The notes under the pieces: model-generated
Seen by the model: the letters and a program-made list of their open reading frames with translations, nothing else
Told to the model about the DNA's origin: nothing
Databases searched by the model: none
Source of the DNA: Amycolatopsis palatopharyngis
Lineage (GTDB): Bacteria > Actinomycetota > Actinomycetes > Mycobacteriales > Pseudonocardiaceae
Assembly (NCBI RefSeq): GCF_003385185.1
Contig: NZ_PQHZ01000002.1
Span: forward strand, 124,001-188,000
DNA: 64,000 nt
Direction: 5' to 3'
Position numbers and translations under genes: made by a program
Shown: piece by piece, positions 1 through 29,646 of the stretch
Position numbering within the stretch: the first letter of the stretch is position 1
How the letters are laid out: each line of letters opens with the position of its first letter

Positions 1-1
1 C

Positions 2-2017
2 TGGCAGGATTTCAACGCGCGCGTGCTCGCCCTCTCGGAGGACCCGTCGCAGCCCCTGCTCGAACGCACCAAGTTCATCGCGATCTTCGCGTCCAATCTG
101 GACGAGTTCTACATGGTCCGGGTCGCCGGCCTCAAACGCAGGGACGAGACGGGGCTGTCGGTGCGCAGCGCGGACGGGCTCACGCCGCGCGAGCAACTGG
201 CGTACATCGCCAAGCGCAATCAGGACCTGGTGGAGCGTCAGACCGAGGCGTTCGAGGAGAACGTTCGGCCCGCGCTCGCCGACGAGGGCATCCGCATCGT
301 GCGCTGGGCGGATCTGGACGCGGCGGACAAGGTTCGCCTGTCGAGCTACTTCAGCGAGCAGATCTTCCCTGTGCTGACTCCGCTCGCGGTGGACCCGGCG
401 CATCCGTTTCCCTACATTTCCGGCCTTTCGCTCAATCTGGCCGTCACGGTTCGCGACCCGGAGGGCGGCACCGAGCGGTTCGCCAGGGTCAAGGTGCCGA
501 ACAACGTGCACCGGCTGATCCGGATCGAGCAGCAACGGCAGAGCCGGACCGCGACGTTCCTTCCGCTGGAGGAGCTGATCTCCGCTCACCTCGGCGAACT
601 CTTCACCGGGATGGAAGTCATCGAACACCACGTGTTCAGGGTCACCCGGAACGCGGATTTCGAGGTCGAGGAGGATCGCGACGAGGACCTGTTGCAAGCA
701 CTCGAACGCGAACTCGCCCAGCGAAGGTTCGGCCCTCCGGTACGCCTTGAGGTCGCCAGCGACATGAGCGAGCACATGCTCGAGTTGCTGCTGCGCGAAC
801 TCGAGGTCGATCCGCACGATGTCGTCGAGGTTCCCGGCCTGCTCGACCTCAGCTGCCTGCACCAGCTCTCCAGTGTGGACCGCAAGGAACTCAAGGACCC
901 ACCGTTCGTGCCCGCGACCCACCCGGCGTTCGGGGAGCGGGAGACACCGAAGAGCGTTTTCGCCACCCTCCGCGAGGGCGACGTCCTCGTCCACCATCCC
1001 TACGACTCGTTCTCCACGAGCGTGCAGCGATTCATCGAACAAGCGGCGGCCGACAACAAGGTCCTCGCCATCAAACAGACGCTGTACCGAACCTCGGGTG
1101 ACTCCCCGGTGGTGGACGCGCTCATCGATGCGGCGCAGGCGGGCAAGCAGGTGGTCGCCCTCGTGGAGATCAAGGCACGGTTCGACGAACTGGCCAACAT
1201 CAGCTGGGCGCGCACACTGGAACGCGCGGGCGTGCACGTGGTCTACGGCCTGGTGGGGCTGAAGACCCACTGCAAGGTCGCGATGGTGGTGCGCCAGGAG
1301 GGCTCCACGATCCGCCGCTACTGCCATATCGGAACCGGCAACTACAACCCGAAGACGGCCAGGATCTACGAGGATATGGGCCTGCTCACCGCGGATCCGA
1401 CGATCGGGGCCGACCTGACCGACCTGTTCAACGTGCTCACCGGCTACTCCAGGCAGGACACCTACCGCAACATCCTGACCTCTCCGCACGGCATCCGGCG
1501 CGGCATCCTGCATTGCATCTCACAGGAAATCGAGCAGCAGAAGGCGGGCGGACGAGCCGGGATTCGGATCAAGTGCAACTCACTGGTCGACGAACAGATC
1601 ATCGACGCCCTGTATCGCGCTTCCCAGGCGGGAGTTCCGGTGGAGATCGTCGTTCGTGGTATCTGCTCACTCAAACCGGGTGTCCCAGGGCTCAGCGACA
1701 ATATCGTCGTCCGCTCCATTCTCGGGCGATTCCTGGAGCACTCACGTGTCTTTCACTTCAGAGCGGGTAGCTCGTATTGGATCGGCAGTGCGGACATGAT
1801 GCACCGAAATCTGGACCGGAGGATCGAGGCACTGGTGCGGGTGAAGGATCCGAAACTGACCGCGCAACTGGACGAGGTGCTGGATTCGGCGCTCGACCCG
1901 GCGACTCGTTGCTGGGTACTCACCGGCAACGGGGAGTGGGAGCCCTCACCAGCCGACGGATCGCAGGTTCGCGACCACCAGGTCGAGACGCTCGCGAAAC
2001 ATCGGGCCGCCGGATGA
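2..2017 (+). CDS. ppk: Polyphosphate kinase 1, left-arm copy, 5' end cut by window edge
   Basis: Second copy of the ppk described at 27430-29646. The reading frame is open from base 2, which corresponds to about residue 68 of the complete 738-residue protein, so the N-terminal part lies outside the window. The rest, including the phosphohistidine motif HIGTGNYN, is identical to the other copy. Its stop overlaps the start of the next gene by four bases (ATGA). Confidence 0.95.
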
Positions 2018-2988
2018 GCCGGGCGGATCGTGCTCCGGCGATCAGGGCCGCGGGCGCTGTGTTGTGGCGAAACCGGGAAGCAGGCACGGACAGCGCCATC
2101 GAGGTAGCCGTCGTGCACCGGCCGCGCTACGACGACTGGTCGCTGCCGAAGGGAAAGCTGGATCCCGGCGAGACCGTACCGGTGGCGGCGGTTCGTGAAC
2201 TTCGGGAGGAGACCGGGTTCGAAGCGGTGCTCGGGAGATACCTGCTCCAGGTCGATTACGAGGTCGACCACCGTGGCGTCCGGTCTGACAAGATCGTGGA
2301 CTTCTTCAGTGCCAGGGCAGTATTCGGCGGGTTCGCGGCGAATGACGAGGTCGATGACCTGCGCTGGCTACCGGTGCGCGAGGCCGAGGCGATGCTGACC
2401 TATCACGCGGACGTGGCCGTACTACGTGAGTTCTGCGCACTTCCCGCCCAACTCACGACGGTCCTGTTGATCCGCCACGCCAAAGCGGGCAAGCGGGAGG
2501 AATGGACCGGCGACGACGATCTTCGTCCACTCTCGGATGCGGGTCAGCGGCAGGCGGAGGCCGTCCGGACCATGGTGCGCGCGTTCCACCCCGATCGGGT
2601 CCTGGCCGCGCCCCGCCTGCGCTGCGTGCAGACCGTGCAGGGCGTCGCGGAGGATCTGGGCACCGAGGTACGACACGAGTCCCTGCTCGCGGAGGAGGGC
2701 TACTGGCGGGATCCGGTCCTGGGCACCGCCAGACTGCTCGCCATCGTCGGTGACGGCGGCACCCCGCTGATCTCCAGTCAGGGAGGGGTCATCCCCGCCG
2801 TCGTCACGGCCCTGGCCGAACGCGATGGTGTGGCGCTGGCCTCCGGCAAATCCGGGACGGTGTCGGCGAAGAAGGGCTCGCTCTGGTTGTTGTCGTTCCG
2901 GCCGCCGACCGAAGCGGACGGGCCACGACTCGTAGCGGCGACCTACTTTCCCAGTCCGCTACCCGCTCCCGCCACCGCGAGGTCCTGA
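2014..2988 (+). CDS. mutT1: Nudix hydrolase with histidine-phosphatase domain, left-arm copy
   Basis: Identical mirror copy of the gene at 26459-27433. The ATG at 2014 overlaps the ppk stop (ATGA), which fixes the start and implies translational coupling. A longer frame upstream runs inside ppk and is not used. Confidence 0.93.
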
Positions 2989-3077
2989 CCGGAGACTCCG
3001 TCCGGCCTTCCACTGTGGATCACCCGGCTGCCGCAGGGCGGTGACGACGAACTCGGGCAACGAAGGTACGTACATGC

Positions 3078-3113
3078 GGCAGGGCCCCGCGCGGGTGTGC
3101 GCGGGGCCCTGCC
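3078..3113. terminator. GC-rich hairpin between convergent mutT1 and hup, left copy
   Basis: A 15-bp perfect stem (GGCAGGGCCCCGCGC and its complement) with a 6-nt loop lies between the converging 3' ends of mutT1 and hup. There is no T-tract on either side, so it would act as a GC-rich bidirectional terminator. Mirror of 26334-26369. Confidence 0.75.
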
Positions 3114-3155
3114 GAGAAGCCACCGTAGTGACGAAATCACCAGCTCACAGGCTGG

Positions 3156-3872
3156 TCACTTCTTTTTCTTGGCTGCGGCGGTGGTCTTCTTCGGAGCCGA
3201 CTTGGCCGAAGTCTTCGCGGCCGCCTTCGGCGCGGCCTTGGCGGCCGGCTTCTTTGCGGCGGAGCTCTTTGTCGCCGATGACGTCGACGCGGCCTTCGTC
3301 GTCTTGGCCGCGGCCTTCGGCGCTGCCTTGGCCGTCGACTTGGTGGCCGCCGTCTTCGGCGCCGCCTTGGTGGCGGTCCGGCTCGCGGTGGTGCTCCGGC
3401 TCGACGCCGCACGGGTCGTCGTCGAACGCGGCGTGGTGGCCTTGGTCCGCGAGGTGGTGCTCCGGGTCGTGCTGGGGCGGCTGGCGGTCGCCCTCGTCGC
3501 CGCGGTGCGGGTGCCGGTGCTACGCGAGGCGGTCGTGCCCGTGCTACGCGCGGCCGGGGTGGCCCGCTTCACGGCCGTTGCCTTCGGCAGCTTCTTCGCG
3601 CCGCTGACAACGTCCTTGAAGGTCGTACCGGCCCGGAAAGCCGGAACGTTGGTCTTCTTCACGCGCACGGTCTCGCCCGTACGCGGGTTGCGAGCGGTGC
3701 GAGCGGCACGCGCACGCTTCTCGAACACACCGAAACCGGTGATGTTCACCTTCTCGCCCTTGTTGACCGTCCGGATGATGATGTCGACGAGACCGTCGAC
3801 AGCTTCCGACGCAACCTTTTTGTCGCCCAAACGCTCGGAGAGCGCTTCGATCAGCTGGGCCTTGTTGGCCAT
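3156..3872 (-). CDS. hup: Nucleoid protein HU with long basic tail, left-arm copy
   Basis: Identical mirror copy of the gene at 25575-26291. Start ATG at 3872 is preceded on the minus strand by GGAGG. An in-frame upstream extension of 26 codons has no ribosome binding site and is not expected to be used. Confidence 0.95.
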
Positions 3873-4129
3873 TCCAGTCCTCCAAGAAGAACTACTTGTA
3901 CACGGCCACGTCGGCCGACTTGCGCACACGGTATTACCAATGCAGCACAAATTCCAAACGGCGCGCGGAAGTTTTCGTTGCCGGAGCGGGATGTTCCGCC
4001 CTCTGAGGGACCTCTGGAGTGGTCTCCAGGCCCTTTTCCGGTGCCGTTCGGCGTGGTTTCACCGACCTTCGGCCGGTGCCGGATCCCCTTGCTGAGCAGG
4101 GAATCCGTGTCTCCGCCTTCGCTGCGGTG

Positions 4130-4723
4130 TCAGCCGGGAGTGGTGACCGGCTTCCACGATGGCCTGTCCGACTCGAACTTGTCGATGTCGGCGGCGTGTC
4201 GCAGAGTCAGCGCGATGTCGTCGAGTCCCTCCAGCAGGCGCCAGCGGGTGTAGTCATCGATCGTGAAGGGTGCGGTGAAGTCCTTGGCTCGTACCGTCTT
4301 CTCCGTGAGGTCCACGGTGACCTCGGTGCCCGGCTCGTTCTCCAGGATCTTCCACAGCTGTTCGACGTCCGACTGCTCACACTCGGCGGCCAGCAGCCCC
4401 TGCTTCCCAGAGTTGCCCCGGAAGATGTCCGCGAAGCGGGACGAGATGACCACGCGGAAGCCGTAGTTCATCAGCGCCCAGACGGCGTGCTCCCTGGACG
4501 AGCCCGTGCCGAAGTCGGCACCGGCGACCAGCACGCTGCCGGACTTGTAGGGCTCGGAATTGAGCACGAAGTGTTCGTCGGCCCGCCAGGCCGCGAACAG
4601 CCCGTCTTCGAAGCCGGTGCGGGTGACCCGCTTGAGGTAGACGGCCGGGATGATCTGGTCAGTGTCCACGTTGGACCTGCGCAGCGGCACTCCGATCCCG
4701 GTGTGGGAGGTGAAGGGTTCCAT
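4130..4723 (-). CDS. leuD: 3-isopropylmalate dehydratase small subunit, left-arm copy
   Basis: Identical mirror copy of leuD at 24724-25317, lying 49 bp downstream of the leuC copy on the minus strand. Confidence 0.95.
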
Positions 4724-4772
4724 GCTGAGTGGCTCCTGTGTCAGTACGAGGTGAAGGGTCGCGACCTGTGCG

Positions 4773-6248
4773 TCAACGGGCGCTGTCGGCGGCTGCCGCG
4801 GTGCTTGCCGTGCTGGCGGAGTGCGGCAACAGGTCCTCAGGCGAGGACAGGGTGCCGCGAACGGCCGTGGCAGCGGCCACGAGCGGCGACACCAGATGGG
4901 TACGCCCGCCCTTGCCCTGCCTGCCCTCGAAGTTCCTGTTGGAGGTCGAGGCACTGCGCTCCCCCGGCTTGAGCTGATCCGGGTTCATCCCGAGGCACAT
5001 CGAGCACCCCGCCTGCCGCCATTCGGCGCCTGCCGCGGTGAACACCTCGTCGAGCCCCTCGGCCTCAGCGGCCTTGCGTACCCGCATCGAACCAGGGACC
5101 ACGAGCATGCGAACCCCCTCCGCGACCTGATGCCCGCGAAGTACCTCGGCTGCCGACCGCAGGTCCTCGATCCGCCCGTTCGTGCAGGAACCGAGGAAGA
5201 CCGTGTCCACCGAAATCTCCCGCAGCGGGGTCCCCGGTTGCAGATCCATGTAGGACAGAGCCTTCTCCGCGGCGAACCGCTCACTCTCGTCGGCGATCTG
5301 CTCGGGGTCCGGGATCCTGGCGTGCAGCGGAAGGCCCTGGCCGGGGTTCGTACCCCAGGTCACGAACGGTGTGAGTTCGGCCGCATCCAGGTGAACCTCC
5401 GCGTCGAACTCGGCGCCGGAATCGGTTCGCAGCTCACGCCAGTTGGCCACAGCGGTGTCCCAATCGGCTCCGGACGGGGCGTGCGGCTTGCCCTTCAGGT
5501 ACTCGAAGGTGACCTCGTCCGGTGCAATCATGCCCGCGCGGGCGCCCGCCTCGATCGACATATTGCAGATCGTCATCCTGGCTTCCATCGAAAGGGCTTC
5601 GATCGCACTGCCGCGATACTCCAGAACGTAGCCCTGTCCACCACCGGTACCGATCTTCGCGATCACCGCCAGGATGATGTCCTTCGCCGTGACTCCCGGC
5701 CGCAACTCGCCGTCCACGGTGATCGCCATCGTCTTGAAGGGACGCAGGGGCAGCGTCTGCGTGGCGAGCACATGCTCCACCTCGGAGGTGCCGATACCGA
5801 AGGCCATCGCCCCGAACGCGCCATGCGTGGAGGTGTGGCTGTCGCCGCAAACCACGGTCATCCCGGGCTGGGTCAGGCCGAGCTGTGGACCGATGACGTG
5901 CACGATTCCCTGTTCGGCATCGCCCATCGGGTGCAGCCGGACCCCGAACTCCTTGCAGTTGCGCCGGAGTGTGTCCACCTGGGTACGCGAAACGGGATCG
6001 GCGATCGGCAGGTCGATATCGATCGTCGGCACGTTGTGGTCTTCGGTGGCGATCGTCAGATCCGGCCTGCGCACGGGCCTGCCCGCGAGGCGGAGACCGT
6101 CGAATGCCTGCGGGCTGGTGACCTCGTGCACGAGGTGCAGGTCGATGTAGAGCAGGTCCGGCTCCGCACCCTCACCGCGGCGCACCGTGTGGGAGTCCCA
6201 CACCTTCTCCGCGAGCGTCTTCGCCTTCGCACCCTGGGTGGTGGTCAT
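4773..6248 (-). CDS. leuC: 3-isopropylmalate dehydratase large subunit, left-arm copy
   Basis: Identical mirror copy of leuC at 23199-24674. Start ATG at 6248 follows a GGGAGGAG ribosome binding site. Divergent from the IclR-type regulator at 6381. Confidence 0.96.
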
Positions 6249-6344
6249 CAGGGCTCCTCCCAAAAAGTTGTGGGAGCAAAGGAACTCGGTCGAGCCGACG
6301 GGCACGAGCCGGCTGGCGACTCGAGTTCGATTTGTCCCAGGATC

Positions 6345-6374
6345 TGGACATCCCAAAGTTCGGGAATGTAGTAT
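6345..6374 (+). promoter_or_regulatory. Promoter of the IclR-type regulator with an internal inverted repeat, left copy
   Basis: TGGACA (6345-6350), an 18-nt spacer and TAGTAT (6369-6374) resemble a primary sigma-factor promoter. Transcription would begin at or next to the GTG at 6381, so the regulator mRNA may be leaderless. The spacer holds an inverted repeat (TCCC-N7-GGGA, 6351-6365), a candidate operator for autoregulation and for leuCD control. Inferred from sequence pattern only. Confidence 0.45.
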
Positions 6375-6380
6375 CGCTAC

Positions 6381-7100
6381 GTGGGACAGCATAGCCCTTC
6401 AAACCAGCACAGCGGTATCGGCGTCCTGGACAAGGCCGTGGCCGTTCTCCAAGCGGTGGCCGACGATCCTTGCGGACTCGCCGAACTCTGCGCACGCACG
6501 GGACTGCCACGCGCGACCGCACACCGTCTCGCCGTGGGTCTCGAGGTGCACCGGCTCCTGCGCCGGGGCGCCGACGGCAGATGGCGCCCCGGCAGCGCGC
6601 TGGCGGAACTGTCGGGCGGCACGACCGACCCATTACTCGACGCCGCGAGTTCGATCCTGCCGAAGCTGCGCGACATCACCGGCGAAAGCGTGCAGCTGTA
6701 CCGCAGGGACGGCGTACAGCGCATCTGTGTGTCCACTGCGGAGCCGCCAAGCGGACTCCGGGACACCGTCCCGATCGGCTCCCGGCTGCCGATGACGGCA
6801 GGCTCAGGGGCCAAAGTGCTCGCCGCGTGGTCCGACCCGCACACACAGCGCACGATCCTGACCGACGCCGTCTACGGCGAGCGGACATTGCTCGAAGTAC
6901 GCAGGCGTGGCTGGGCACAGAGTGTCGCCGAGCGCGAGCCGGGCGTCGCGAGTGTCTCCGCGCCGGTGCGGGACTCCTCCGGCTCGGTTGTCGCCGCGGT
7001 ATCGGTGTCCGGCCCGATCGAGCGGATCGGCCGCAAGCCGGGCTCCCGCTGGGCCGCCGATCTCCTCGCGGCCGCCGAAGCCCTCCAGGATCGCTTGTAA
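6381..7100 (+). CDS. ltbR: IclR-family regulator of leucine biosynthesis (NdgR/LtbR type), left-arm copy
   Basis: Identical mirror copy of the gene at 22347-23066. It starts with GTG at 6381 and is divergent from leuC, with 132 bp between the two starts. Confidence 0.85.
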
Positions 7101-7119
7101 GCCCCCCGAGACACGCAAA

Positions 7120-7163
7120 AACACCGGAGGCCCATCCGCCGGAACGGATGGGCCTCCGGTGTT
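7120..7163. terminator. Strong bidirectional terminator between regulator and tRNA-Glu, left copy
   Basis: A stem of about 19 bp (AACACCGGAGGCCCATCCG and its complement) with a 6-nt loop. It is preceded by an A-run and followed by a pyrimidine-rich tract, so it can terminate both the regulator and the minus-strand tRNA transcript. Mirror of 22284-22327. Confidence 0.85.
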
Positions 7164-7173
7164 CTTCTTCGCG

Positions 7174-7246
7174 TACCCCCGATGGGATTCGAACCCACGC
7201 TACCGGCGTGAGAGGCCGGCGTCCTAGGCCGCTAGACGACGGGGGC
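7174..7246 (-). tRNA. tRNA-Glu (anticodon CTC), left-arm copy
   Basis: Exact mirror of the tRNA at 22201-22273: cloverleaf with anticodon CTC, T-loop GGTTCGAAT, 73 nt. Confidence 0.95.
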
Positions 7247-7296
7247 TTGCCTTGTTGCGAGAGAGAACTTACCAGACTGAAATTTTCCCTCTGCAG

Positions 7297-7368
7297 CTGG
7301 GGTACCAGGACTCGAACCTAGACTAACTGAACCAGAATCAGTCGTGCTGCCGATTACACCATACCCCA
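7297..7368 (-). tRNA. tRNA-Gln (anticodon CTG), left-arm copy
   Basis: Exact mirror of the tRNA at 22079-22150: acceptor TGGGGTA/TACCCCA, anticodon CTG, 72 nt. Confidence 0.95.
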
Positions 7369-7427
7369 ATACTCGGCGCTCTCCGGGAGAACTCCTGTCG
7401 AACACCGCCGGGAAGAAATACTAGACC

Positions 7428-7443
7428 ACCCCGAATTCGGGGT
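7428..7443. repeat. 16-bp perfect palindrome upstream of tRNA-Gln, left copy
   Basis: ACCCCGAATTCGGGGT lies between the HAD hydrolase 3' end and tRNA-Gln. It could be a short terminator stem or a protein binding site. Mirror of 22004-22019. Confidence 0.4.
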
Positions 7444-7472
7444 CGCAGGCGGCCCCGGCACACGCCCCTTGA

Positions 7473-8258
7473 TCATCGCTGTATCGGCACTCCCACGCTG
7501 GCGAACTCGCAGATCAGCAGCTCGGGAAGCTCGGCGAGGCTGTCGATCTCGTGCACCCCCGTTGGCACGTCCTCGGTTACCGCGCGCCGGTTCAGCCAGA
7601 CACCGCCGAGACCGGCGTCCCGGGCCCCGATCGCATCGGTGTCGAGTTTGTCCCCCACATGCGCCGCCTCGGACGGGTCACAACCCATTGTCAGGCAAAC
7701 AGTGTGAAACATCACTGGATCGGGTTTCGCGGTTCCCATTTCGCCTGCGATCGCCACGTGATCAAAGAACCGCGCCAGTCCGAGGTCCGCCAGCTTCGCC
7801 CGCTGGTGCCCGCCAGAGGCGTTGGTCACCGCGGCGAGCTGCACGCCGGCCGCGTTCAGCCAGTCGAGACAGGGCAACACATCGTCGAACAGCCGCCACG
7901 AGCGGCGCAGCAACTCCCGTCGCCTGGCCTCGAAACCGACGACGTCACCGGTGTCCATCTCCGCGCCGAGTTCGGCGAGAAAGCACCGGCTGCGAGTGAG
8001 GTGCATATCGGCGTATGCGAGGTCGCCTGCGACGACCTTGGCCACATGCTCGTCGGTGATCCGCTCCCAGAGCGACCACATGTCGGCCCTGCCGATCAGC
8101 TCGGCCAGCGCACGGCTGCCTGCCGAGGTGAAGTCGATCAGGGTGTCGTCGATGTCGAGACAGACCAGCCGGAGCGCCGGAGGGGACCAGGGCCCAGGAG
8201 GGGCGGCCCGTTCGGCCGTTGCCTGCGATGCCGTCGGGGTAGCGAACGCAAAATCCAC
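7473..8258 (-). CDS. HAD-superfamily hydrolase, left-arm copy
   Basis: Identical mirror copy of the gene at 21189-21974. Confidence 0.88.
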   Translation of the reverse strand: MDFAFATPTASQATAERAAPPGPWSPPALRLVCLDIDDTLIDFTSAGSRALAELIGRADMWSLWERITDEHVAKVVAGDLAYADMHLTRSRCFLAELGAEMDTGDVVGFEARRRELLRRSWRLFDDVLPCLDWLNAAGVQLAAVTNASGGHQRAKLADLGLARFFDHVAIAGEMGTAKPDPVMFHTVCLTMGCDPSEAAHVGDKLDTDAIGARDAGLGGVWLNRRAVTEDVPTGVHEIDSLAELPELLICEFASVGVPIQR

Positions 8259-8338
8259 TCAGCGAGGCTAGGCCACTTTCGGCCGTACCGATTCGACTAT
8301 CGAGGTGATTAGTGCTGCTCTGTTCCGGTGTATGTCTT

Positions 8339-9829
8339 CTACCCTGCGTTGGACGGGAGGGCGCGACGCAGCCGTCCGAGCGATTTGTCCCGGCCGAGCA
8401 GCTCCATCGATTCGTACAACGGTGGCGACACCGTACGCCCCGTGACGGCCACCCGAACAGGGGCGAACGCCTTGCGGGGCTTCAGCCCGAGGCCTTCGAC
8501 CAGCGCGTCCTTGAGCGCCTGCTCGATGGCGCCGGTCTCCCAGGAATCCAGTGCCTCCAACGACTCGAGCGCGGACCGCAGCACGGGCTCGGAGTCCGGC
8601 CCCAGCGCCTTCGTCGCGGACGCCTCCTCCGGGGCGAAGCTTTCCTCATCGATAAAGAGAAAGCGCAGCATGTCGGTGGCGTCGGAGAGCACGGTCACCC
8701 GCTCCTGCACCAGTGGCGCGATCTCCCGCAGCGCGGCGAGCTGCTCCTCCCCCGGCGTCTCCGGCAGCACTCCCGCGGCTGTGAGGTAGGGCACCACCCG
8801 GCTCGCGAAGTCCGCGTTGTCCAGTGCGCGGACATGCGTACCGTTGATCGCCTCGGCCTTTTTGACGTCGAACCGCGCAGGATTGGCGCTCACCTTGGTG
8901 ATCTCGAAAGCGGCCACGAGTTCGTCGACACCGAACACGTCCCGGTCGTCGGCGATCGACCAGCCGAGCAGCGCCAGATAGTTGAGCAGCCCCTCCGGGA
9001 TGAAGCCCCGGTCGCGGTAGTTGAAAAGATTCGAGGAGGGGTCGCGTTTGGACAACTTCTTGTTGCCCTCGCCCATCACGTACGGCAGGTGGCCGAACTC
9101 GGGCACGAACTCCGCGACGCCGATGCGCCGCAACGCCTGGTACAACGCGATCTGGCGTGGAGTGGAGGGCAGGAGGTCCTCGCCGCGCAGCACGTGGGTG
9201 ATGCGCATCATCGCGTCGTCGACGGGATTGGTCAGTGTGTACAGCGGATCGCCGTTGCCACGCACCAGAACGGGATCGGGAATGGTTCCTGCCGGGAAAC
9301 TGATCTCACCACGCACCAGGTCGGTCCAGGCGAGGTCCTCGCCGGGCATCCGCAACCGCAGCACCGGAGAACGGCCCTGCGCGCGGAACTCCTCCCGCTG
9401 CTGCTCGGTCAGTTCGCGGTCGAAGTTGTCGTAGCCGAGCTTCGGGTCCTGCCCCGCCGCCTTGCGCCGCGCCTCCACCTCATCGTTCGTGGAGAACGCC
9501 TCGTACAGCTCGCCTGCCTCCAGCAACCGGCGAGCCACGTCGGCGTAGATGTCGCCCCGCAGGCTCTGTCGGTACGGGCCGAAGTCGCCACCGATCTCGG
9601 GACCCTCGTCCCAGTCGAGGCCGAGCCAGCGCAGCGCGTCGAGCAGCGCCTCGTAGGACTCCTCCGAATCCCGCGCGGCGTCGGTGTCCTCGATCCGGAA
9701 CACCAGGCTTCCGCCGTGATGCCGGGCGAAGGCCCAGTTGAACAACGCCGTTCGGATCAACCCGACATGCGGGGTTCCGGTCGGCGAGGGACAGAAGCGG
9801 GCGCGCACTGGCGAAGGCATCTCAGTCAT
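8339..9829 (-). CDS. gltX: Glutamyl-tRNA synthetase, left-arm copy
   Basis: Identical mirror copy of gltX at 19618-21108. The start is the ATG giving [18 protein letters not shown]; ten further in-frame codons upstream are not needed. Confidence 0.95.
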
Positions 9830-9909
9830 AGCCCGATCAGCGTATCGGGCCGCCCGCAAGCTCGAAACGCGAGCGCCTCCCCTTGACGTCGGAACTCCGG
9901 CGGGCCACA

Positions 9910-11183: not shown

Positions 11184-11186
11184 CGC

Positions 11187-21108: not shown

Positions 21109-21188
21109 AAGACATACACCGGAACAGAGCAGCACTAATCACCTCGATAGTCGAATCGGTACGGCCGAAAGTGGCCTAGCCTCGCTGA

Positions 21189-21974
21189 GTGGATTTTGCG
21201 TTCGCTACCCCGACGGCATCGCAGGCAACGGCCGAACGGGCCGCCCCTCCTGGGCCCTGGTCCCCTCCGGCGCTCCGGCTGGTCTGTCTCGACATCGACG
21301 ACACCCTGATCGACTTCACCTCGGCAGGCAGCCGTGCGCTGGCCGAGCTGATCGGCAGGGCCGACATGTGGTCGCTCTGGGAGCGGATCACCGACGAGCA
21401 TGTGGCCAAGGTCGTCGCAGGCGACCTCGCATACGCCGATATGCACCTCACTCGCAGCCGGTGCTTTCTCGCCGAACTCGGCGCGGAGATGGACACCGGT
21501 GACGTCGTCGGTTTCGAGGCCAGGCGACGGGAGTTGCTGCGCCGCTCGTGGCGGCTGTTCGACGATGTGTTGCCCTGTCTCGACTGGCTGAACGCGGCCG
21601 GCGTGCAGCTCGCCGCGGTGACCAACGCCTCTGGCGGGCACCAGCGGGCGAAGCTGGCGGACCTCGGACTGGCGCGGTTCTTTGATCACGTGGCGATCGC
21701 AGGCGAAATGGGAACCGCGAAACCCGATCCAGTGATGTTTCACACTGTTTGCCTGACAATGGGTTGTGACCCGTCCGAGGCGGCGCATGTGGGGGACAAA
21801 CTCGACACCGATGCGATCGGGGCCCGGGACGCCGGTCTCGGCGGTGTCTGGCTGAACCGGCGCGCGGTAACCGAGGACGTGCCAACGGGGGTGCACGAGA
21901 TCGACAGCCTCGCCGAGCTTCCCGAGCTGCTGATCTGCGAGTTCGCCAGCGTGGGAGTGCCGATACAGCGATGA
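21189..21974 (+). CDS. HAD-superfamily hydrolase
   Basis: 261 residues. HAD motif I is CLDIDDTLIDF (nucleophile Asp and general-acid Asp), motif II TNAS, motif III Lys in TAKPDPVMF, and motif IV HVGDKLDTDAIGARDAG. An insertion between motifs I and II gives the C1 cap of subfamily IA. It resembles phosphoglycolate phosphatase and YjjG-like nucleotidases; the substrate is unknown. GTG at 21189 is taken as start. The first about 28 residues are Pro/Ala-rich and not part of the fold, so a later start is possible. It lies 80 bp after gltX on the same strand. Confidence 0.88.
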   Translation: MDFAFATPTASQATAERAAPPGPWSPPALRLVCLDIDDTLIDFTSAGSRALAELIGRADMWSLWERITDEHVAKVVAGDLAYADMHLTRSRCFLAELGAEMDTGDVVGFEARRRELLRRSWRLFDDVLPCLDWLNAAGVQLAAVTNASGGHQRAKLADLGLARFFDHVAIAGEMGTAKPDPVMFHTVCLTMGCDPSEAAHVGDKLDTDAIGARDAGLGGVWLNRRAVTEDVPTGVHEIDSLAELPELLICEFASVGVPIQR

Positions 21975-22003
21975 TCAAGGGGCGTGTGCCGGGGCCGCCT
22001 GCG

Positions 22004-22019
22004 ACCCCGAATTCGGGGT
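22004..22019. repeat. 16-bp perfect palindrome upstream of tRNA-Gln
   Basis: ACCCCGAATTCGGGGT, 60 bp before tRNA-Gln and 30 bp after the HAD gene. It may be a weak terminator stem (no T-run) or a binding site. Confidence 0.4.
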
Positions 22020-22078
22020 GGTCTAGTATTTCTTCCCGGCGGTGTTCGACAGGAGTTCTCCCGGAGAGCGCCGAGTAT

Positions 22079-22150
22079 TGGGGTATGGTGTAATCGGCAG
22101 CACGACTGATTCTGGTTCAGTTAGTCTAGGTTCGAGTCCTGGTACCCCAG
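22079..22150 (+). tRNA. tRNA-Gln (anticodon CTG)
   Basis: 72 nt. Acceptor stem TGGGGTA pairs with TACCCCA, anticodon stem ACTGA/TCAGT encloses TTCTGGT with anticodon CTG, and the T-loop is GGTTCGAGTCC. CCA is not encoded. It reads CAG codons. 50 bp upstream of tRNA-Glu and probably cotranscribed with it. Confidence 0.95.
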
Positions 22151-22200
22151 CTGCAGAGGGAAAATTTCAGTCTGGTAAGTTCTCTCTCGCAACAAGGCAA

Positions 22201-22273
22201 GCCCCCGTCGTCTAGCGGCCTAGGACGCCGGCCTCTCACGCCGGTAGCGTGGGTTCGAATCCCATCGGGGGTA
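22201..22273 (+). tRNA. tRNA-Glu (anticodon CTC)
   Basis: 73 nt. Acceptor GCCCCCG pairs with CGGGGGT, discriminator A, anticodon CTC in loop CCTCTCA, T-loop GGTTCGAATCC. CCA is not encoded. A strong terminator begins 11 nt downstream. Confidence 0.95.
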
Positions 22274-22283
22274 CGCGAAGAAG

Positions 22284-22327
22284 AACACCGGAGGCCCATC
22301 CGTTCCGGCGGATGGGCCTCCGGTGTT
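22284..22327. terminator. Strong bidirectional terminator between tRNA-Glu and regulator
   Basis: Stem of about 19 bp (AACACCGGAGGCCCATCCG and complement) with a 6-nt loop. GAAGAA precedes it and TTTTTG follows it. It serves the tRNA operon on the plus strand and the regulator on the minus strand. Confidence 0.87.
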
Positions 22328-22346
22328 TTTGCGTGTCTCGGGGGGC

Positions 22347-23066
22347 TTACAAGCGATCCTGGAGGGCTTCGGCGGCCGCGAGGAGATCGGCGGCCCAGCG
22401 GGAGCCCGGCTTGCGGCCGATCCGCTCGATCGGGCCGGACACCGATACCGCGGCGACAACCGAGCCGGAGGAGTCCCGCACCGGCGCGGAGACACTCGCG
22501 ACGCCCGGCTCGCGCTCGGCGACACTCTGTGCCCAGCCACGCCTGCGTACTTCGAGCAATGTCCGCTCGCCGTAGACGGCGTCGGTCAGGATCGTGCGCT
22601 GTGTGTGCGGGTCGGACCACGCGGCGAGCACTTTGGCCCCTGAGCCTGCCGTCATCGGCAGCCGGGAGCCGATCGGGACGGTGTCCCGGAGTCCGCTTGG
22701 CGGCTCCGCAGTGGACACACAGATGCGCTGTACGCCGTCCCTGCGGTACAGCTGCACGCTTTCGCCGGTGATGTCGCGCAGCTTCGGCAGGATCGAACTC
22801 GCGGCGTCGAGTAATGGGTCGGTCGTGCCGCCCGACAGTTCCGCCAGCGCGCTGCCGGGGCGCCATCTGCCGTCGGCGCCCCGGCGCAGGAGCCGGTGCA
22901 CCTCGAGACCCACGGCGAGACGGTGTGCGGTCGCGCGTGGCAGTCCCGTGCGTGCGCAGAGTTCGGCGAGTCCGCAAGGATCGTCGGCCACCGCTTGGAG
23001 AACGGCCACGGCCTTGTCCAGGACGCCGATACCGCTGTGCTGGTTTGAAGGGCTATGCTGTCCCAC
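22347..23066 (-). CDS. ltbR: IclR-family regulator of leucine biosynthesis (NdgR/LtbR type)
   Basis: 239 residues. An N-terminal winged helix-turn-helix (about 10-75, with [20 protein letters not shown] as recognition region) is followed by an IclR effector domain. The family is known in Streptomyces (NdgR) and Corynebacterium (LtbR) as a regulator of leuCD and other amino-acid genes, and is encoded divergently from leuC there as here. GTG at 23066 lies immediately at the predicted transcription start, so the mRNA may be leaderless. It probably binds the inverted repeat in its own promoter and controls both directions. Confidence 0.86.
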
Positions 23067-23072
23067 GTAGCG

Positions 23073-23102
23073 ATACTACATTCCCGAACTTTGGGATGTC
23101 CA
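23073..23102 (-). promoter_or_regulatory. Promoter and candidate operator between the regulator and leuC
   Basis: On the minus strand, TGGACA (23102-23097), 18 nt, TAGTAT (23078-23073). The TCCC-N7-GGGA dyad at 23082-23096 sits in the spacer, where a bound regulator would block the promoter. Mirror of the left copy at 6345-6374. Confidence 0.45.
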
Positions 23103-23170
23103 GATCCTGGGACAAATCGAACTCGAGTCGCCAGCCGGCTCGTGCCCGTCGGCTCGACCGAGTTCCTTTG

Positions 23171-23190
23171 CTCCCACAACTTTTTGGGAG
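23171..23190 (+). promoter_or_regulatory. Hairpin adjoining the leuC ribosome binding site
   Basis: CTCCCA (23171-23176) can pair with TGGGAG (23185-23190); the 3' half is the upstream part of the GGGAGGAG ribosome binding site of leuC. It may modulate leuC translation. Mirror at 6257-6276. Confidence 0.35.
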
Positions 23191-23198
23191 GAGCCCTG

Positions 23199-24674
23199 AT
23201 GACCACCACCCAGGGTGCGAAGGCGAAGACGCTCGCGGAGAAGGTGTGGGACTCCCACACGGTGCGCCGCGGTGAGGGTGCGGAGCCGGACCTGCTCTAC
23301 ATCGACCTGCACCTCGTGCACGAGGTCACCAGCCCGCAGGCATTCGACGGTCTCCGCCTCGCGGGCAGGCCCGTGCGCAGGCCGGATCTGACGATCGCCA
23401 CCGAAGACCACAACGTGCCGACGATCGATATCGACCTGCCGATCGCCGATCCCGTTTCGCGTACCCAGGTGGACACACTCCGGCGCAACTGCAAGGAGTT
23501 CGGGGTCCGGCTGCACCCGATGGGCGATGCCGAACAGGGAATCGTGCACGTCATCGGTCCACAGCTCGGCCTGACCCAGCCCGGGATGACCGTGGTTTGC
23601 GGCGACAGCCACACCTCCACGCATGGCGCGTTCGGGGCGATGGCCTTCGGTATCGGCACCTCCGAGGTGGAGCATGTGCTCGCCACGCAGACGCTGCCCC
23701 TGCGTCCCTTCAAGACGATGGCGATCACCGTGGACGGCGAGTTGCGGCCGGGAGTCACGGCGAAGGACATCATCCTGGCGGTGATCGCGAAGATCGGTAC
23801 CGGTGGTGGACAGGGCTACGTTCTGGAGTATCGCGGCAGTGCGATCGAAGCCCTTTCGATGGAAGCCAGGATGACGATCTGCAATATGTCGATCGAGGCG
23901 GGCGCCCGCGCGGGCATGATTGCACCGGACGAGGTCACCTTCGAGTACCTGAAGGGCAAGCCGCACGCCCCGTCCGGAGCCGATTGGGACACCGCTGTGG
24001 CCAACTGGCGTGAGCTGCGAACCGATTCCGGCGCCGAGTTCGACGCGGAGGTTCACCTGGATGCGGCCGAACTCACACCGTTCGTGACCTGGGGTACGAA
24101 CCCCGGCCAGGGCCTTCCGCTGCACGCCAGGATCCCGGACCCCGAGCAGATCGCCGACGAGAGTGAGCGGTTCGCCGCGGAGAAGGCTCTGTCCTACATG
24201 GATCTGCAACCGGGGACCCCGCTGCGGGAGATTTCGGTGGACACGGTCTTCCTCGGTTCCTGCACGAACGGGCGGATCGAGGACCTGCGGTCGGCAGCCG
24301 AGGTACTTCGCGGGCATCAGGTCGCGGAGGGGGTTCGCATGCTCGTGGTCCCTGGTTCGATGCGGGTACGCAAGGCCGCTGAGGCCGAGGGGCTCGACGA
24401 GGTGTTCACCGCGGCAGGCGCCGAATGGCGGCAGGCGGGGTGCTCGATGTGCCTCGGGATGAACCCGGATCAGCTCAAGCCGGGGGAGCGCAGTGCCTCG
24501 ACCTCCAACAGGAACTTCGAGGGCAGGCAGGGCAAGGGCGGGCGTACCCATCTGGTGTCGCCGCTCGTGGCCGCTGCCACGGCCGTTCGCGGCACCCTGT
24601 CCTCGCCTGAGGACCTGTTGCCGCACTCCGCCAGCACGGCAAGCACCGCGGCAGCCGCCGACAGCGCCCGTTGA
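23199..24674 (+). CDS. leuC: 3-isopropylmalate dehydratase large subunit
   Basis: 491 residues. With LeuD it isomerises 2-isopropylmalate to 3-isopropylmalate in leucine synthesis and, in the citramalate route, citramalate to beta-methylmalate. The aconitase-type iron-sulfur ligands are Cys in [13 protein letters not shown] and the CxxC of [22 protein letters not shown] is the substrate-region signature. The ATG at 23199 follows GGGAGGAG; an in-frame extension to 23055 lacks a ribosome site and crosses the regulator promoter. The last about 25 residues (Ser/Ala/Thr-rich) exceed the usual family end. leuD follows after 49 bp. Confidence 0.97.
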
Positions 24675-24723
24675 CGCACAGGTCGCGACCCTTCACCTCG
24701 TACTGACACAGGAGCCACTCAGC

Positions 24724-25317
24724 ATGGAACCCTTCACCTCCCACACCGGGATCGGAGTGCCGCTGCGCAGGTCCAACGTGGACACTGACCAGATCATCCC
24801 GGCCGTCTACCTCAAGCGGGTCACCCGCACCGGCTTCGAAGACGGGCTGTTCGCGGCCTGGCGGGCCGACGAACACTTCGTGCTCAATTCCGAGCCCTAC
24901 AAGTCCGGCAGCGTGCTGGTCGCCGGTGCCGACTTCGGCACGGGCTCGTCCAGGGAGCACGCCGTCTGGGCGCTGATGAACTACGGCTTCCGCGTGGTCA
25001 TCTCGTCCCGCTTCGCGGACATCTTCCGGGGCAACTCTGGGAAGCAGGGGCTGCTGGCCGCCGAGTGTGAGCAGTCGGACGTCGAACAGCTGTGGAAGAT
25101 CCTGGAGAACGAGCCGGGCACCGAGGTCACCGTGGACCTCACGGAGAAGACGGTACGAGCCAAGGACTTCACCGCACCCTTCACGATCGATGACTACACC
25201 CGCTGGCGCCTGCTGGAGGGACTCGACGACATCGCGCTGACTCTGCGACACGCCGCCGACATCGACAAGTTCGAGTCGGACAGGCCATCGTGGAAGCCGG
25301 TCACCACTCCCGGCTGA
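24724..25317 (+). CDS. leuD: 3-isopropylmalate dehydratase small subunit
   Basis: 197 residues. It forms the swivelling domain of the LeuCD heterodimer. It begins [24 protein letters not shown] and carries [15 protein letters not shown], the Ser-Arg motif of the active site. AGGAG lies about ten bases before the ATG. A longer frame from 24493 overlaps leuC and is rejected. Confidence 0.96.
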
Positions 25318-25574
25318 CACCGCAGCGAAGGCGGAGACACGGATTCCCTGCTCAGCAAGGGGATCCGGCACCGGCCGAAGGTCGGTGAAACCACGCCGAA
25401 CGGCACCGGAAAAGGGCCTGGAGACCACTCCAGAGGTCCCTCAGAGGGCGGAACATCCCGCTCCGGCAACGAAAACTTCCGCGCGCCGTTTGGAATTTGT
25501 GCTGCATTGGTAATACCGTGTGCGCAAGTCGGCCGACGTGGCCGTGTACAAGTAGTTCTTCTTGGAGGACTGGA

Positions 25575-26291
25575 ATGGCCAACAAGGCCCAGCTGATCGA
25601 AGCGCTCTCCGAGCGTTTGGGCGACAAAAAGGTTGCGTCGGAAGCTGTCGACGGTCTCGTCGACATCATCATCCGGACGGTCAACAAGGGCGAGAAGGTG
25701 AACATCACCGGTTTCGGTGTGTTCGAGAAGCGTGCGCGTGCCGCTCGCACCGCTCGCAACCCGCGTACGGGCGAGACCGTGCGCGTGAAGAAGACCAACG
25801 TTCCGGCTTTCCGGGCCGGTACGACCTTCAAGGACGTTGTCAGCGGCGCGAAGAAGCTGCCGAAGGCAACGGCCGTGAAGCGGGCCACCCCGGCCGCGCG
25901 TAGCACGGGCACGACCGCCTCGCGTAGCACCGGCACCCGCACCGCGGCGACGAGGGCGACCGCCAGCCGCCCCAGCACGACCCGGAGCACCACCTCGCGG
26001 ACCAAGGCCACCACGCCGCGTTCGACGACGACCCGTGCGGCGTCGAGCCGGAGCACCACCGCGAGCCGGACCGCCACCAAGGCGGCGCCGAAGACGGCGG
26101 CCACCAAGTCGACGGCCAAGGCAGCGCCGAAGGCCGCGGCCAAGACGACGAAGGCCGCGTCGACGTCATCGGCGACAAAGAGCTCCGCCGCAAAGAAGCC
26201 GGCCGCCAAGGCCGCGCCGAAGGCGGCCGCGAAGACTTCGGCCAAGTCGGCTCCGAAGAAGACCACCGCCGCAGCCAAGAAAAAGAAGTGA
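25575..26291 (+). CDS. hup: Nucleoid-associated HU protein with long Lys/Ala/Arg tail
   Basis: 238 residues in two parts. Residues 1-90 are a standard HU fold ([41 protein letters not shown]). Residues about 108-238 are a disordered, strongly basic tail: first Arg/Thr/Ser-rich repeats around STGT and TTR, then histone-H1-like [16 protein letters not shown] units ending in KKKK. This two-part form is the actinobacterial HupB/HupS type that compacts DNA. GGAGG lies six bases before the ATG. The AT-richer upstream 100 bp carries the promoter, possibly TTGGAA at 25490-25495. Converges on mutT1. Confidence 0.95.
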
Positions 26292-26333
26292 CCAGCCTGT
26301 GAGCTGGTGATTTCGTCACTACGGTGGCTTCTC

Positions 26334-26369
26334 GGCAGGGCCCCGCGCACACCCGCGCGGGGCCCTGCC
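26334..26369. terminator. GC-rich hairpin between convergent hup and mutT1
   Basis: 15-bp perfect stem with a 6-nt loop (GGCAGGGCCCCGCGC, loop ACACCC). No T-run follows. Its place between converging genes supports termination. Confidence 0.75.
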
Positions 26370-26458
26370 GCATGTACGTACCTTCGTTGCCCGAGTTCGT
26401 CGTCACCGCCCTGCGGCAGCCGGGTGATCCACAGTGGAAGGCCGGACGGAGTCTCCGG

Positions 26459-27433
26459 TCAGGACCTCGCGGTGGCGGGAGCGGGTAGCGGACTGGGAAA
26501 GTAGGTCGCCGCTACGAGTCGTGGCCCGTCCGCTTCGGTCGGCGGCCGGAACGACAACAACCAGAGCGAGCCCTTCTTCGCCGACACCGTCCCGGATTTG
26601 CCGGAGGCCAGCGCCACACCATCGCGTTCGGCCAGGGCCGTGACGACGGCGGGGATGACCCCTCCCTGACTGGAGATCAGCGGGGTGCCGCCGTCACCGA
26701 CGATGGCGAGCAGTCTGGCGGTGCCCAGGACCGGATCCCGCCAGTAGCCCTCCTCCGCGAGCAGGGACTCGTGTCGTACCTCGGTGCCCAGATCCTCCGC
26801 GACGCCCTGCACGGTCTGCACGCAGCGCAGGCGGGGCGCGGCCAGGACCCGATCGGGGTGGAACGCGCGCACCATGGTCCGGACGGCCTCCGCCTGCCGC
26901 TGACCCGCATCCGAGAGTGGACGAAGATCGTCGTCGCCGGTCCATTCCTCCCGCTTGCCCGCTTTGGCGTGGCGGATCAACAGGACCGTCGTGAGTTGGG
27001 CGGGAAGTGCGCAGAACTCACGTAGTACGGCCACGTCCGCGTGATAGGTCAGCATCGCCTCGGCCTCGCGCACCGGTAGCCAGCGCAGGTCATCGACCTC
27101 GTCATTCGCCGCGAACCCGCCGAATACTGCCCTGGCACTGAAGAAGTCCACGATCTTGTCAGACCGGACGCCACGGTGGTCGACCTCGTAATCGACCTGG
27201 AGCAGGTATCTCCCGAGCACCGCTTCGAACCCGGTCTCCTCCCGAAGTTCACGAACCGCCGCCACCGGTACGGTCTCGCCGGGATCCAGCTTTCCCTTCG
27301 GCAGCGACCAGTCGTCGTAGCGCGGCCGGTGCACGACGGCTACCTCGATGGCGCTGTCCGTGCCTGCTTCCCGGTTTCGCCACAACACAGCGCCCGCGGC
27401 CCTGATCGCCGGAGCACGATCCGCCCGGCTCAT
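26459..27433 (-). CDS. mutT1: Nudix hydrolase fused to histidine phosphatase (MutT1 type)
   Basis: 324 residues. N-terminal Nudix domain (about 10-140) with the box G-x5-E-x7-REL-x-EE-x-G starting at GKLDPGE, then a C-terminal phosphoglycerate-mutase-like domain opening with LLIRHAKAG. The same fusion in mycobacteria (MutT1) hydrolyses 8-oxo-dGTP/8-oxo-GTP and diadenosine polyphosphates. Start ATG overlaps the ppk stop (ATGA). The chain cofC-ppk-mutT1 on the minus strand is probably one transcript. Confidence 0.93.
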
Positions 27434-29646
27434 CCGGCGGCCCGATGTTTCGCGAGCGTCTCGACCTGGTGGTCGCGAACCTGCGATCCGTCGGCTGGTG
27501 AGGGCTCCCACTCCCCGTTGCCGGTGAGTACCCAGCAACGAGTCGCCGGGTCGAGCGCCGAATCCAGCACCTCGTCCAGTTGCGCGGTCAGTTTCGGATC
27601 CTTCACCCGCACCAGTGCCTCGATCCTCCGGTCCAGATTTCGGTGCATCATGTCCGCACTGCCGATCCAATACGAGCTACCCGCTCTGAAGTGAAAGACA
27701 CGTGAGTGCTCCAGGAATCGCCCGAGAATGGAGCGGACGACGATATTGTCGCTGAGCCCTGGGACACCCGGTTTGAGTGAGCAGATACCACGAACGACGA
27801 TCTCCACCGGAACTCCCGCCTGGGAAGCGCGATACAGGGCGTCGATGATCTGTTCGTCGACCAGTGAGTTGCACTTGATCCGAATCCCGGCTCGTCCGCC
27901 CGCCTTCTGCTGCTCGATTTCCTGTGAGATGCAATGCAGGATGCCGCGCCGGATGCCGTGCGGAGAGGTCAGGATGTTGCGGTAGGTGTCCTGCCTGGAG
28001 TAGCCGGTGAGCACGTTGAACAGGTCGGTCAGGTCGGCCCCGATCGTCGGATCCGCGGTGAGCAGGCCCATATCCTCGTAGATCCTGGCCGTCTTCGGGT
28101 TGTAGTTGCCGGTTCCGATATGGCAGTAGCGGCGGATCGTGGAGCCCTCCTGGCGCACCACCATCGCGACCTTGCAGTGGGTCTTCAGCCCCACCAGGCC
28201 GTAGACCACGTGCACGCCCGCGCGTTCCAGTGTGCGCGCCCAGCTGATGTTGGCCAGTTCGTCGAACCGTGCCTTGATCTCCACGAGGGCGACCACCTGC
28301 TTGCCCGCCTGCGCCGCATCGATGAGCGCGTCCACCACCGGGGAGTCACCCGAGGTTCGGTACAGCGTCTGTTTGATGGCGAGGACCTTGTTGTCGGCCG
28401 CCGCTTGTTCGATGAATCGCTGCACGCTCGTGGAGAACGAGTCGTAGGGATGGTGGACGAGGACGTCGCCCTCGCGGAGGGTGGCGAAAACGCTCTTCGG
28501 TGTCTCCCGCTCCCCGAACGCCGGGTGGGTCGCGGGCACGAACGGTGGGTCCTTGAGTTCCTTGCGGTCCACACTGGAGAGCTGGTGCAGGCAGCTGAGG
28601 TCGAGCAGGCCGGGAACCTCGACGACATCGTGCGGATCGACCTCGAGTTCGCGCAGCAGCAACTCGAGCATGTGCTCGCTCATGTCGCTGGCGACCTCAA
28701 GGCGTACCGGAGGGCCGAACCTTCGCTGGGCGAGTTCGCGTTCGAGTGCTTGCAACAGGTCCTCGTCGCGATCCTCCTCGACCTCGAAATCCGCGTTCCG
28801 GGTGACCCTGAACACGTGGTGTTCGATGACTTCCATCCCGGTGAAGAGTTCGCCGAGGTGAGCGGAGATCAGCTCCTCCAGCGGAAGGAACGTCGCGGTC
28901 CGGCTCTGCCGTTGCTGCTCGATCCGGATCAGCCGGTGCACGTTGTTCGGCACCTTGACCCTGGCGAACCGCTCGGTGCCGCCCTCCGGGTCGCGAACCG
29001 TGACGGCCAGATTGAGCGAAAGGCCGGAAATGTAGGGAAACGGATGCGCCGGGTCCACCGCGAGCGGAGTCAGCACAGGGAAGATCTGCTCGCTGAAGTA
29101 GCTCGACAGGCGAACCTTGTCCGCCGCGTCCAGATCCGCCCAGCGCACGATGCGGATGCCCTCGTCGGCGAGCGCGGGCCGAACGTTCTCCTCGAACGCC
29201 TCGGTCTGACGCTCCACCAGGTCCTGATTGCGCTTGGCGATGTACGCCAGTTGCTCGCGCGGCGTGAGCCCGTCCGCGCTGCGCACCGACAGCCCCGTCT
29301 CGTCCCTGCGTTTGAGGCCGGCGACCCGGACCATGTAGAACTCGTCCAGATTGGACGCGAAGATCGCGATGAACTTGGTGCGTTCGAGCAGGGGCTGCGA
29401 CGGGTCCTCCGAGAGGGCGAGCACGCGCGCGTTGAAATCCTGCCAGGAGAGTTCCCGGTTGAAGTAGCGATCGTCGGGCAGCGAGTCGGTGAGCTGGGCG
29501 CTCGCCGCCGTCACGGCGGGCGGAGCCGAGGGGACCGCGTGCTTCTCCTGGGCCCTGTCGTTCGCCGAGGGCATCCGCCGGGACTGACCATCGGTCGTGG
29601 ATGACGGTTGGGCGGTGGTGATCTCGTCGCTGCTCACACCCTGCAT
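27430..29646 (-). CDS. ppk: Polyphosphate kinase 1
   Basis: 738 residues, cytoplasmic or membrane-associated. It reversibly polymerises the gamma-phosphate of ATP into polyphosphate. Domain order: a variable N-tail of about 50 residues, the N-terminal helical domain ([16 protein letters not shown]), the head domain, then two phospholipase-D-like C-terminal domains. The autophosphorylated His is His509 in [10 protein letters not shown], and a second conserved His is in [11 protein letters not shown]. The ATG at 29646 has no clear ribosome site; GTG three codons later is an alternative. The right-arm copy is complete. It lies 54 bp after cofC and overlaps mutT1. Confidence 0.96.

What the first reader, a model, noticed from the sequence alone, without database searches (positions are those of the whole stretch)
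1..29446. 29.4-kb spacer-less perfect palindrome carrying two copies of a housekeeping block
Bases 1-14723 are the exact reverse complement of 14724-29446, duplicating ppk, mutT1, hup, leuCD, its regulator, two tRNAs, gltX, cimA and others. Perfect long palindromes without a spacer are normally unstable in bacterial cells, and cimA is followed at the axis by its own mirror image instead of the leuB/serA/ilv genes that usually lie beyond it in this order. A fold-back assembly or library artefact is the leading explanation; a real fold-back duplication, or a chromosome-end structure, would be striking. Anyone counting gene copies from this sequence would be misled.
Basis: partly seen in the sequence, partly recalled or inferred. 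Interest (0 to 1): 0.85.

Follow-up and report, generated by a model that had tools for sequence, protein, structure and literature searches.

The report
Whole-contig fold-back assembly artefact
The giant perfect palindrome is almost certainly not in the bacterium: the draft assembly of this Amycolatopsis folded one 139-kb stretch back on itself at a tiny, much-repeated hairpin, so every gene in it is falsely counted twice.

Summary
Confirmed, enlarged, then explained as an artefact. Window 1-29446 is an exact spacer-less palindrome, but 29446 is only where the window cuts it: the whole contig (G000:C44, 277,446 bp) equals its own reverse complement, 138,723 bp per arm, no mismatch. The axis is the centre of a short palindromic repeat whose 20-bp core is found 163 times in this assembly, 6 of them C44 mirror copies. 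In A. marina one contig runs from leuB across the orthologous hairpins into cimA. Here C86 matches the leuB side and stops 96 bp after leuB, and the C44 arm matches the cimA side; the two meet at those hairpins. Contig termini overlap by exactly 127 bp, as in short-read de Bruijn assemblies. Another contig end, C69, enters the same repeat, turns back on itself and ends in Nextera-like adapter. Entire-contig palindromes in SPAdes assemblies are already reported as likely assembly error (PMC9455707, passages). Reads were not available. The repeat that seeds the artefact looks real and lineage-restricted: 331 and 294 matches of its 14-bp centre in two Amycolatopsis genomes, 0-6 in 78 others.

The parts
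1..14723 (-). Part of the false second arm (exact reverse complement of 14724-29446); continues beyond the window to C44:277446
14724..64000 (+). Part of the arm read in the orientation of cimA; mirror of 29447-64000 lies outside the window; arm continues to C44:1
14711..14736 (.). Axis: dispersed perfect palindrome CTCGCACTTTCCCGGGAAAGTGCGAG; symmetry axis at 14723/14724
17360..17385 (.). Another copy of the same palindromic repeat, inside the arm (C44:136062-136087)
12062..12087 (.). Mirror image of that copy (C44:141360-141385)
14947..16575 (+). cimA (citramalate synthase), first gene beyond the axis; start codon chosen by eye
   Evidence: TIGR00977, E 6.1e-172
12872..14500 (-). False mirror copy of cimA
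19588..21108 (+). gltX open frame; mirror at 8339-9859 minus
22079..22274 (+). tRNA-Gln and tRNA-Glu; mirror at 7173-7368 minus
22347..23066 (-). Regulator matching IclR-family models below their cut-offs; mirror at 6381-7100 plus
23055..24674 (+). leuC open frame; mirror at 4773-6392 minus
25497..26291 (+). HU-type DNA-binding protein open frame; mirror at 3156-3950 minus
26459..27670 (-). NUDIX plus histidine phosphatase (mutT1-like) open frame; mirror at 1777-2988 plus
27430..29646 (-). ppk; mirror copy cut by the window start

Best explanation
The palindrome is an artefact of a short-read draft assembly. The real genome most likely has leuB, then one or more copies of a dispersed hairpin repeat, then cimA and the rest of the arm, once. 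At the hairpin the assembly left the cimA side by its own reverse complement instead of continuing to leuB, and so wrote the 138,723-bp arm twice as one self-complementary contig; the leuB side was left as the end of contig C86. Shown: whole-contig self-complementarity, axis at the repeat, one leuB side on C86, colinearity of C86 and of the first 61 kb of the arm with one A. marina contig that joins them, exact 127-bp overlaps between contig ends. Inferred: that this genome has the A. marina arrangement, and the immediate cause. I favour fold-back library molecules or reads at the hairpin in a Nextera-type library (about 0.6) over a pure graph error at small k around the palindrome (about 0.4).
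For: C44 = its reverse complement, 277,446 bp, 0 mismatches, no N. Axis at the centre of a 26-bp palindrome that recurs elsewhere; 20-bp core 163 matches (157 without the C44 mirror copies), reversed control 0. In A. marina the sequence on the other side of the orthologous hairpin is not the mirror of the arm but leuB. Arm bases 1-61,463 from the axis match A. marina C18:69056 down to 1 in order (20 blocks of 300 bp or more); C86 bases 7,789-34,786 match 96804 down to 69169 in order (9 blocks). leuB side: one strong match in this genome, C86, 92%; 7 weak ones; C86 ends 96 bp after the leuB stop. leuB upstream of cimA on the same strand within 1 kb in 50 of 80 relatives and within 9 kb in 76 of 80; 3 of the 4 misses have contigs that begin within 503 bp of cimA. 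13 of the 19 terminal overlaps printed are exactly 127 bp, and C44's outer end shares exactly 127 bp with the start of C98. C69 3' end: same repeat, then 28 bases mirroring its own lead-in (25 of the first 27 from the axis match, about 11 of them the repeat's own half), then 27 of 32 bases of a Nextera adapter; C88, which starts with the same lead-in, continues differently. C43 3' and C75 5' ends also carry adapter. Listed contamination 6.49 here against 0-4 in 17 other genus members.
Against: No reads or coverage were available, so single-copy depth is not shown. C44 is the only end-to-end spacer-less palindrome among the 61 largest contigs, so fold-back was rare despite many repeat copies. 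Only one contig end (C69) shows a fold-back tail with adapter; symmetry as strong as at C69 (score 22) also occurs without any artefact (an internal control stretch scored 24.5; C54 3' scored 26.5), so the symmetry alone proves nothing there. The outer 77 kb of the arm was not compared, because the A. marina contig ends. The higher contamination value was not traced to C44.
Confidence: 0.97

Rival explanations
1. A real inverted chromosome duplication formed in the cell: a break near the hairpin, resection, fold-back into a hairpin-capped end and replication, as described for E. coli lacking SbcCD and RecA.
For: The mechanism is reported for interrupted palindromes of 85 and 246 bp in E. coli sbcDC recA (PMC3315005, passages). 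The axis sits exactly on a hairpin. A de Bruijn assembler would also print a real palindrome as one contig (inference).
Against: The leuB side ends at the same hairpin region as one copy, just where the relative joins it to cimA. Outer ends stop at an exact 127-bp branch shared with C98. No difference in 138,723 bp. The repeat is far shorter than the palindromes studied, and a 277-kb spacer-less palindrome is expected to be unstable (general knowledge).
Confidence: 0.02
2. A natural very large inverted repeat at the replication terminus, as in Lactobacillus delbrueckii subsp. bulgaricus.
For: Natural inverted repeats of 38-76 kb are reported in all 5 L. bulgaricus chromosomes analysed and none of 1373 others (PMC5345009, abstract and start of introduction).
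Against: In 5 of 5 Amycolatopsis assemblies examined cimA lies 0.17-0.23 of the main contig from dnaA, not near 0.5 (circularity assumed).
Confidence: 0.005
3. A chromosome-end structure (hairpin telomere or terminal inverted repeat of a linear replicon).
For: A fold-back axis at a hairpin would look like a replicated hairpin telomere.
Against: In A. marina the same point is interior to a 346-kb contig, 69 kb from its end; in five further relatives cimA lies well inside the main contig.
Confidence: 0.005

Closest known systems
Entire-contig palindromes in SPAdes assemblies of Mycobacterium bovis (PMC9455707, passages seen)
   Same: Whole contig is one palindrome, genes present as reverse-complement pairs with identical DNA, draft assembly; authors judged it likely assembly error (81 contigs)
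   Different: The passages seen give no cause; here the axis is tied to one dispersed hairpin repeat and the lost neighbour contig is identified
Inverted chimeric library reads at palindromes, PDSM model (PMC10908179, passages seen)
   Same: Chimeric fold-back reads centred on natural palindromes, with mismatched bases, from library preparation
   Different: Human DNA, sonication or endonuclease; here a bacterial draft with Nextera-like adapter and only contig ends as witnesses
Palindrome-induced inverted chromosome duplication in E. coli sbcDC recA (PMC3315005, passages seen)
   Same: Inverted duplication centred on a palindrome
   Different: Real event in a double mutant with 85-246 bp interrupted palindromes; here the evidence points to the assembly
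Large inverted repeats at the L. bulgaricus terminus (PMC5345009, abstract and start of introduction seen)
   Same: Very large inverted repeat in a bacterium
   Different: At the terminus and in all 5 strains analysed; here about 0.2 of the chromosome from dnaA in relatives, and A. marina lacks it

Membership tests
Palindromic-contig assembly artefact | Contig equals its own reverse complement end to end | tested here: met
Palindromic-contig assembly artefact | Expected neighbour across the axis exists elsewhere in the same assembly, ending at the axis region | tested here: met
   C86
Palindromic-contig assembly artefact | Single-copy read depth over the duplicated arm | not testable with these tools
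   no reads held
Palindromic-contig assembly artefact | Short-read de Bruijn origin of the assembly | tested here: met
   13 of 19 printed terminal overlaps exactly 127 bp, C44/C98 127 bp; adapter at contig ends; that k = 127 fits SPAdes is recalled
Real in vivo inverted duplication | Normal junction across the axis replaced in the genome | tested here: inconclusive
   the relative has the normal junction and both sides exist here; needs reads
Terminus inverted repeat (L. bulgaricus type) | Lies at the replication terminus | tested here: not met
   0.17-0.23 of the main contig from dnaA in 5 of 5 relatives examined
REP/RAYT repeat (for the axis element) | Y1 transposase (PF01797) in the genome | tested here: not met
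   0 of 2 genomes (this one and A. marina); the control found it in 5 of 14 known genomes

The most novel reading that the evidence does not exclude
A subpopulation of the sequenced culture really carried an inverted duplication seeded at one of the dispersed hairpins, so that hairpin-capped ends made in the cell, not the library, supplied the fold-back reads; the lineage that amplified this repeat would then be a natural system for palindrome-driven inverted duplication.
Probability: 0.02. Interest if true: 0.65.

Novelty: not a real feature. Interest (0 to 1): 0.1.

Why it matters
Gene counts and duplication screens from this genome are wrong over 138.7 kb of arm, and other draft genomes rich in short perfect palindromes may carry the same error. 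A one-line test (does a contig equal its own reverse complement) would catch it. The repeat that seeds it looks real and, among the genomes searched, is abundant in only two, both Amycolatopsis.

Tried and rejected
Terminus inverted repeat: rejected on distance from dnaA. Chromosome end: rejected, A. marina reads through. General fold-back of the assembly: lengths were obtained for the 61 largest contigs (6.18 of 7.01 Mb). Besides C44, 30 have even length and 30 odd; an odd-length contig cannot be a spacer-less palindrome. Both 1-kb ends were compared for 41 others (all 30 even, 11 odd) and none is the exact reverse complement of the other end. The 70 smaller contigs were not tested. RAYT transposase behind the repeat: none found. 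Rfam scan of the window at gathering thresholds: only the four tRNAs. Helical phasing of the repeat: 75 spacings typed from the partial list fall at 31-35, 42-47, 52-55, 62-64 and one at 75 bp, but resultant lengths at periods 10.0 and 10.5 are alike (0.841, 0.833), 9.5 and 11 give 0.75, and the classes share spacer sequence, so they are not independent; left as an observation. Print: (97 papers hold at least one of three strings; 15 listed, papers with more of the terms first) the first papers hold two strings and no listed one holds the 20-mer; supplements not searched. (listing only) and one passage of PMC12306157 gave nothing on Amycolatopsis repeats.
Full report
OBSERVATION. Window 1-14723 is exactly the reverse complement of 14724-29446, without spacer. 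The window is bases 89447-153446 (minus strand) of contig C44 of a draft genome of 7,012,383 bp in 131 contigs. I fetched the rest of C44 and compared it with its reverse complement: all 277,446 bases match, with no N. The palindrome is the contig, each arm is 138,723 bp, and its axis is window 14723/14724.

AXIS. The axis is the centre of CTCGCACTTTCCCGGGAAAGTGCGAG (window 14711-14736). The 20-bp core GCACTTTCCCGGGAAAGTGC matches 163 times in this assembly, against 0 for the pattern read backwards. C44 contributes 13 of these, 6 of them mirror copies, so about 157 are independent of the fold-back. Among 29 other copies that I held in this genome (a few may be the same place held twice), perfect symmetry has a median of 24 bp and a maximum of 48 bp. 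The orthologous A. marina hairpin is symmetric for 24 bp. Symmetry over 277 kb far exceeds the repeat.

WHAT BELONGS ACROSS THE AXIS. CimA (542 aa, TIGR00977) finds its closest named relative in Amycolatopsis marina CGMCC 4.3568 at 96% (the 80 best of 576 relatives kept). There the arm matches from the middle of the orthologous hairpin outwards. This start is set by my query, which began at the axis, but the other side of that hairpin shows no mirror of the arm beyond short repeat matches. It holds a second hairpin copy, a terminator-like stem (by eye) and the end of leuB. The A. marina leuB side matches this genome strongly once, at C86:32114-34786 (92%); 7 other hits are 81% or less over at most about 300 bp. 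C86 is 34,882 bp long and ends 96 bp after the leuB stop. On the A. marina contig (bases 1-98000 fetched), arm bases 1-61,463 match 69056 down to 1, and C86 bases 7,789-34,786 match 96804 down to 69169, each in order, with some indels of up to about 3.6 kb; blocks under 300 bp were not shown. The two contigs meet around about 0.1 kb that holds the hairpins. The outer 77 kb of the arm could not be compared because the A. marina contig ends there. Among 80 relatives, leuB lies upstream of cimA on the same strand within 1 kb in 50 and within 9 kb in 76. Of the 4 without a match, 3 have contigs that begin within 503 bp of cimA.

HOW THE ASSEMBLY DID IT. I compared 103 contig termini. Of 19 overlap rows printed, one being C44 with itself, 13 are exactly 127 bp. 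C44's outer end shares exactly 127 bp with the start of C98 and then diverges, 288 of 303 identical. This is the signature of a de Bruijn assembly at k = 127 (that SPAdes uses this k is recalled). C44's outer end therefore looks like a normal branch at a duplicated gene; its translation looks like an ABC-transporter ATPase (by eye). The C69 3' end runs into the same repeat and then mirrors its own lead-in: 25 of the first 27 positions from the axis match, about 11 of them the repeat's own half. It then continues in 27 of 32 bases of a Nextera adapter. C88, which starts with the same lead-in, has different sequence after the repeat. Two other ends, C43 3' and C75 5', also end in adapter. Best adapter scores were 48, 39 and 33 against a shuffled maximum of 22. 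Symmetry alone is no proof: one internal control stretch scored 24.5, above C69's 22. I infer that fold-back molecules or reads at hairpins were present in the library and that one such event gave the assembler the path across the axis. A pure graph error remains possible.

HOW GENERAL. Of the 61 largest contigs (6.18 Mb) only C44 is an end-to-end spacer-less palindrome; 70 smaller contigs were not tested. The listed contamination of 6.49, against 0-4 for 17 genus members, fits doubled marker genes but was not traced.

RIVALS. A real in vivo inverted duplication (E. coli sbcDC recA, PMC3315005, passages seen) is not formally excluded without reads. It does not explain why leuB ends at the very hairpin region that joins it to cimA in the relative. 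The L. bulgaricus terminus type (PMC5345009, abstract and start of introduction seen) fails on position: cimA is 0.17-0.23 of the main contig from dnaA in 5 of 5 relatives examined, taking that contig as circular.

KNOWN KIND. [quoted passage not shown] PMC10908179 (passages seen) describes inverted chimeric library reads at palindromes. This case adds a seed repeat and the lost neighbour.

THE REPEAT ITSELF. The 14-bp centre CTTTCCCGGGAAAG matches 331 times here (11 fewer without the C44 mirror copies) and 294 times in A. marina, and 0-6 times in the 78 other Amycolatopsis genomes searched, 13 of which have at least one. The 20-bp core occurs in 4 of 297 genomes of a family-wide draw that includes this one (163, 241, 3, 2). 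Copies often come in pairs: 121 matches here, C44 mirror copies included, and 135 in A. marina to a pattern with starts 20-80 bp apart. With rough gene calls, 12 copies in the C44 arm fall as 6 between convergent genes (at 3 places), 2 between tandem genes, 2 between divergent genes, 1 at the axis and 1 inside a called gene, 17 bp from its centre to the gene's edge; of all intergenic gaps over 30 bp there, 11 of 60 are convergent. In 40 kb of A. marina 3 of 5 copies (at 1 place) are convergent, against 5 of 20 gaps. The numbers are small. Function is untested; a bidirectional terminator or a REP-like element are leads only, and no Y1 transposase was found in either genome.

Noticed in passing
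window 14711-14736, 17360-17385; C44:116778-116803 and others: A dispersed perfect palindrome (14-bp centre CTTTCCCGGGAAAG: 331 matches here, C44 mirror copies included, 294 in A. marina, 0-6 in 78 other Amycolatopsis genomes); 15 of 17 mapped copies intergenic, 1 at the axis, 1 at a gene's edge, 9 of 17 between convergent genes: an apparently lineage-restricted repeat family.
   Followed up: partly
G000 and G011, listed pairs: Copies come in pairs; the 75 spacings I took from the partial list fall at 31-35, 42-47, 52-55, 62-64 and 75 bp, with class-specific spacer sequences, one class near-palindromic itself (by eye); a composite repeat, possibly protein-bound.
   Followed up: partly
L004 (G000:C69 3' end), L251 (C43 3' end), L198 (C75 5' end): Untrimmed Nextera-like adapter sequence at contig termini of the draft genome.
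   Followed up: yes
C70 5' end (L193) and C85 5' end (L207): Two contigs overlap through the same hairpin repeat, with one base differing beyond it (by eye): another assembly break at the repeat.
   Followed up: no
L070, JOAA01000008.1: A record titled Rhodococcus rhodnii carries a CimA 86% identical to this Amycolatopsis one, and no leuB match was found in its 21.6-kb stretch; possibly a mislabelled or mixed genome.
   Followed up: no
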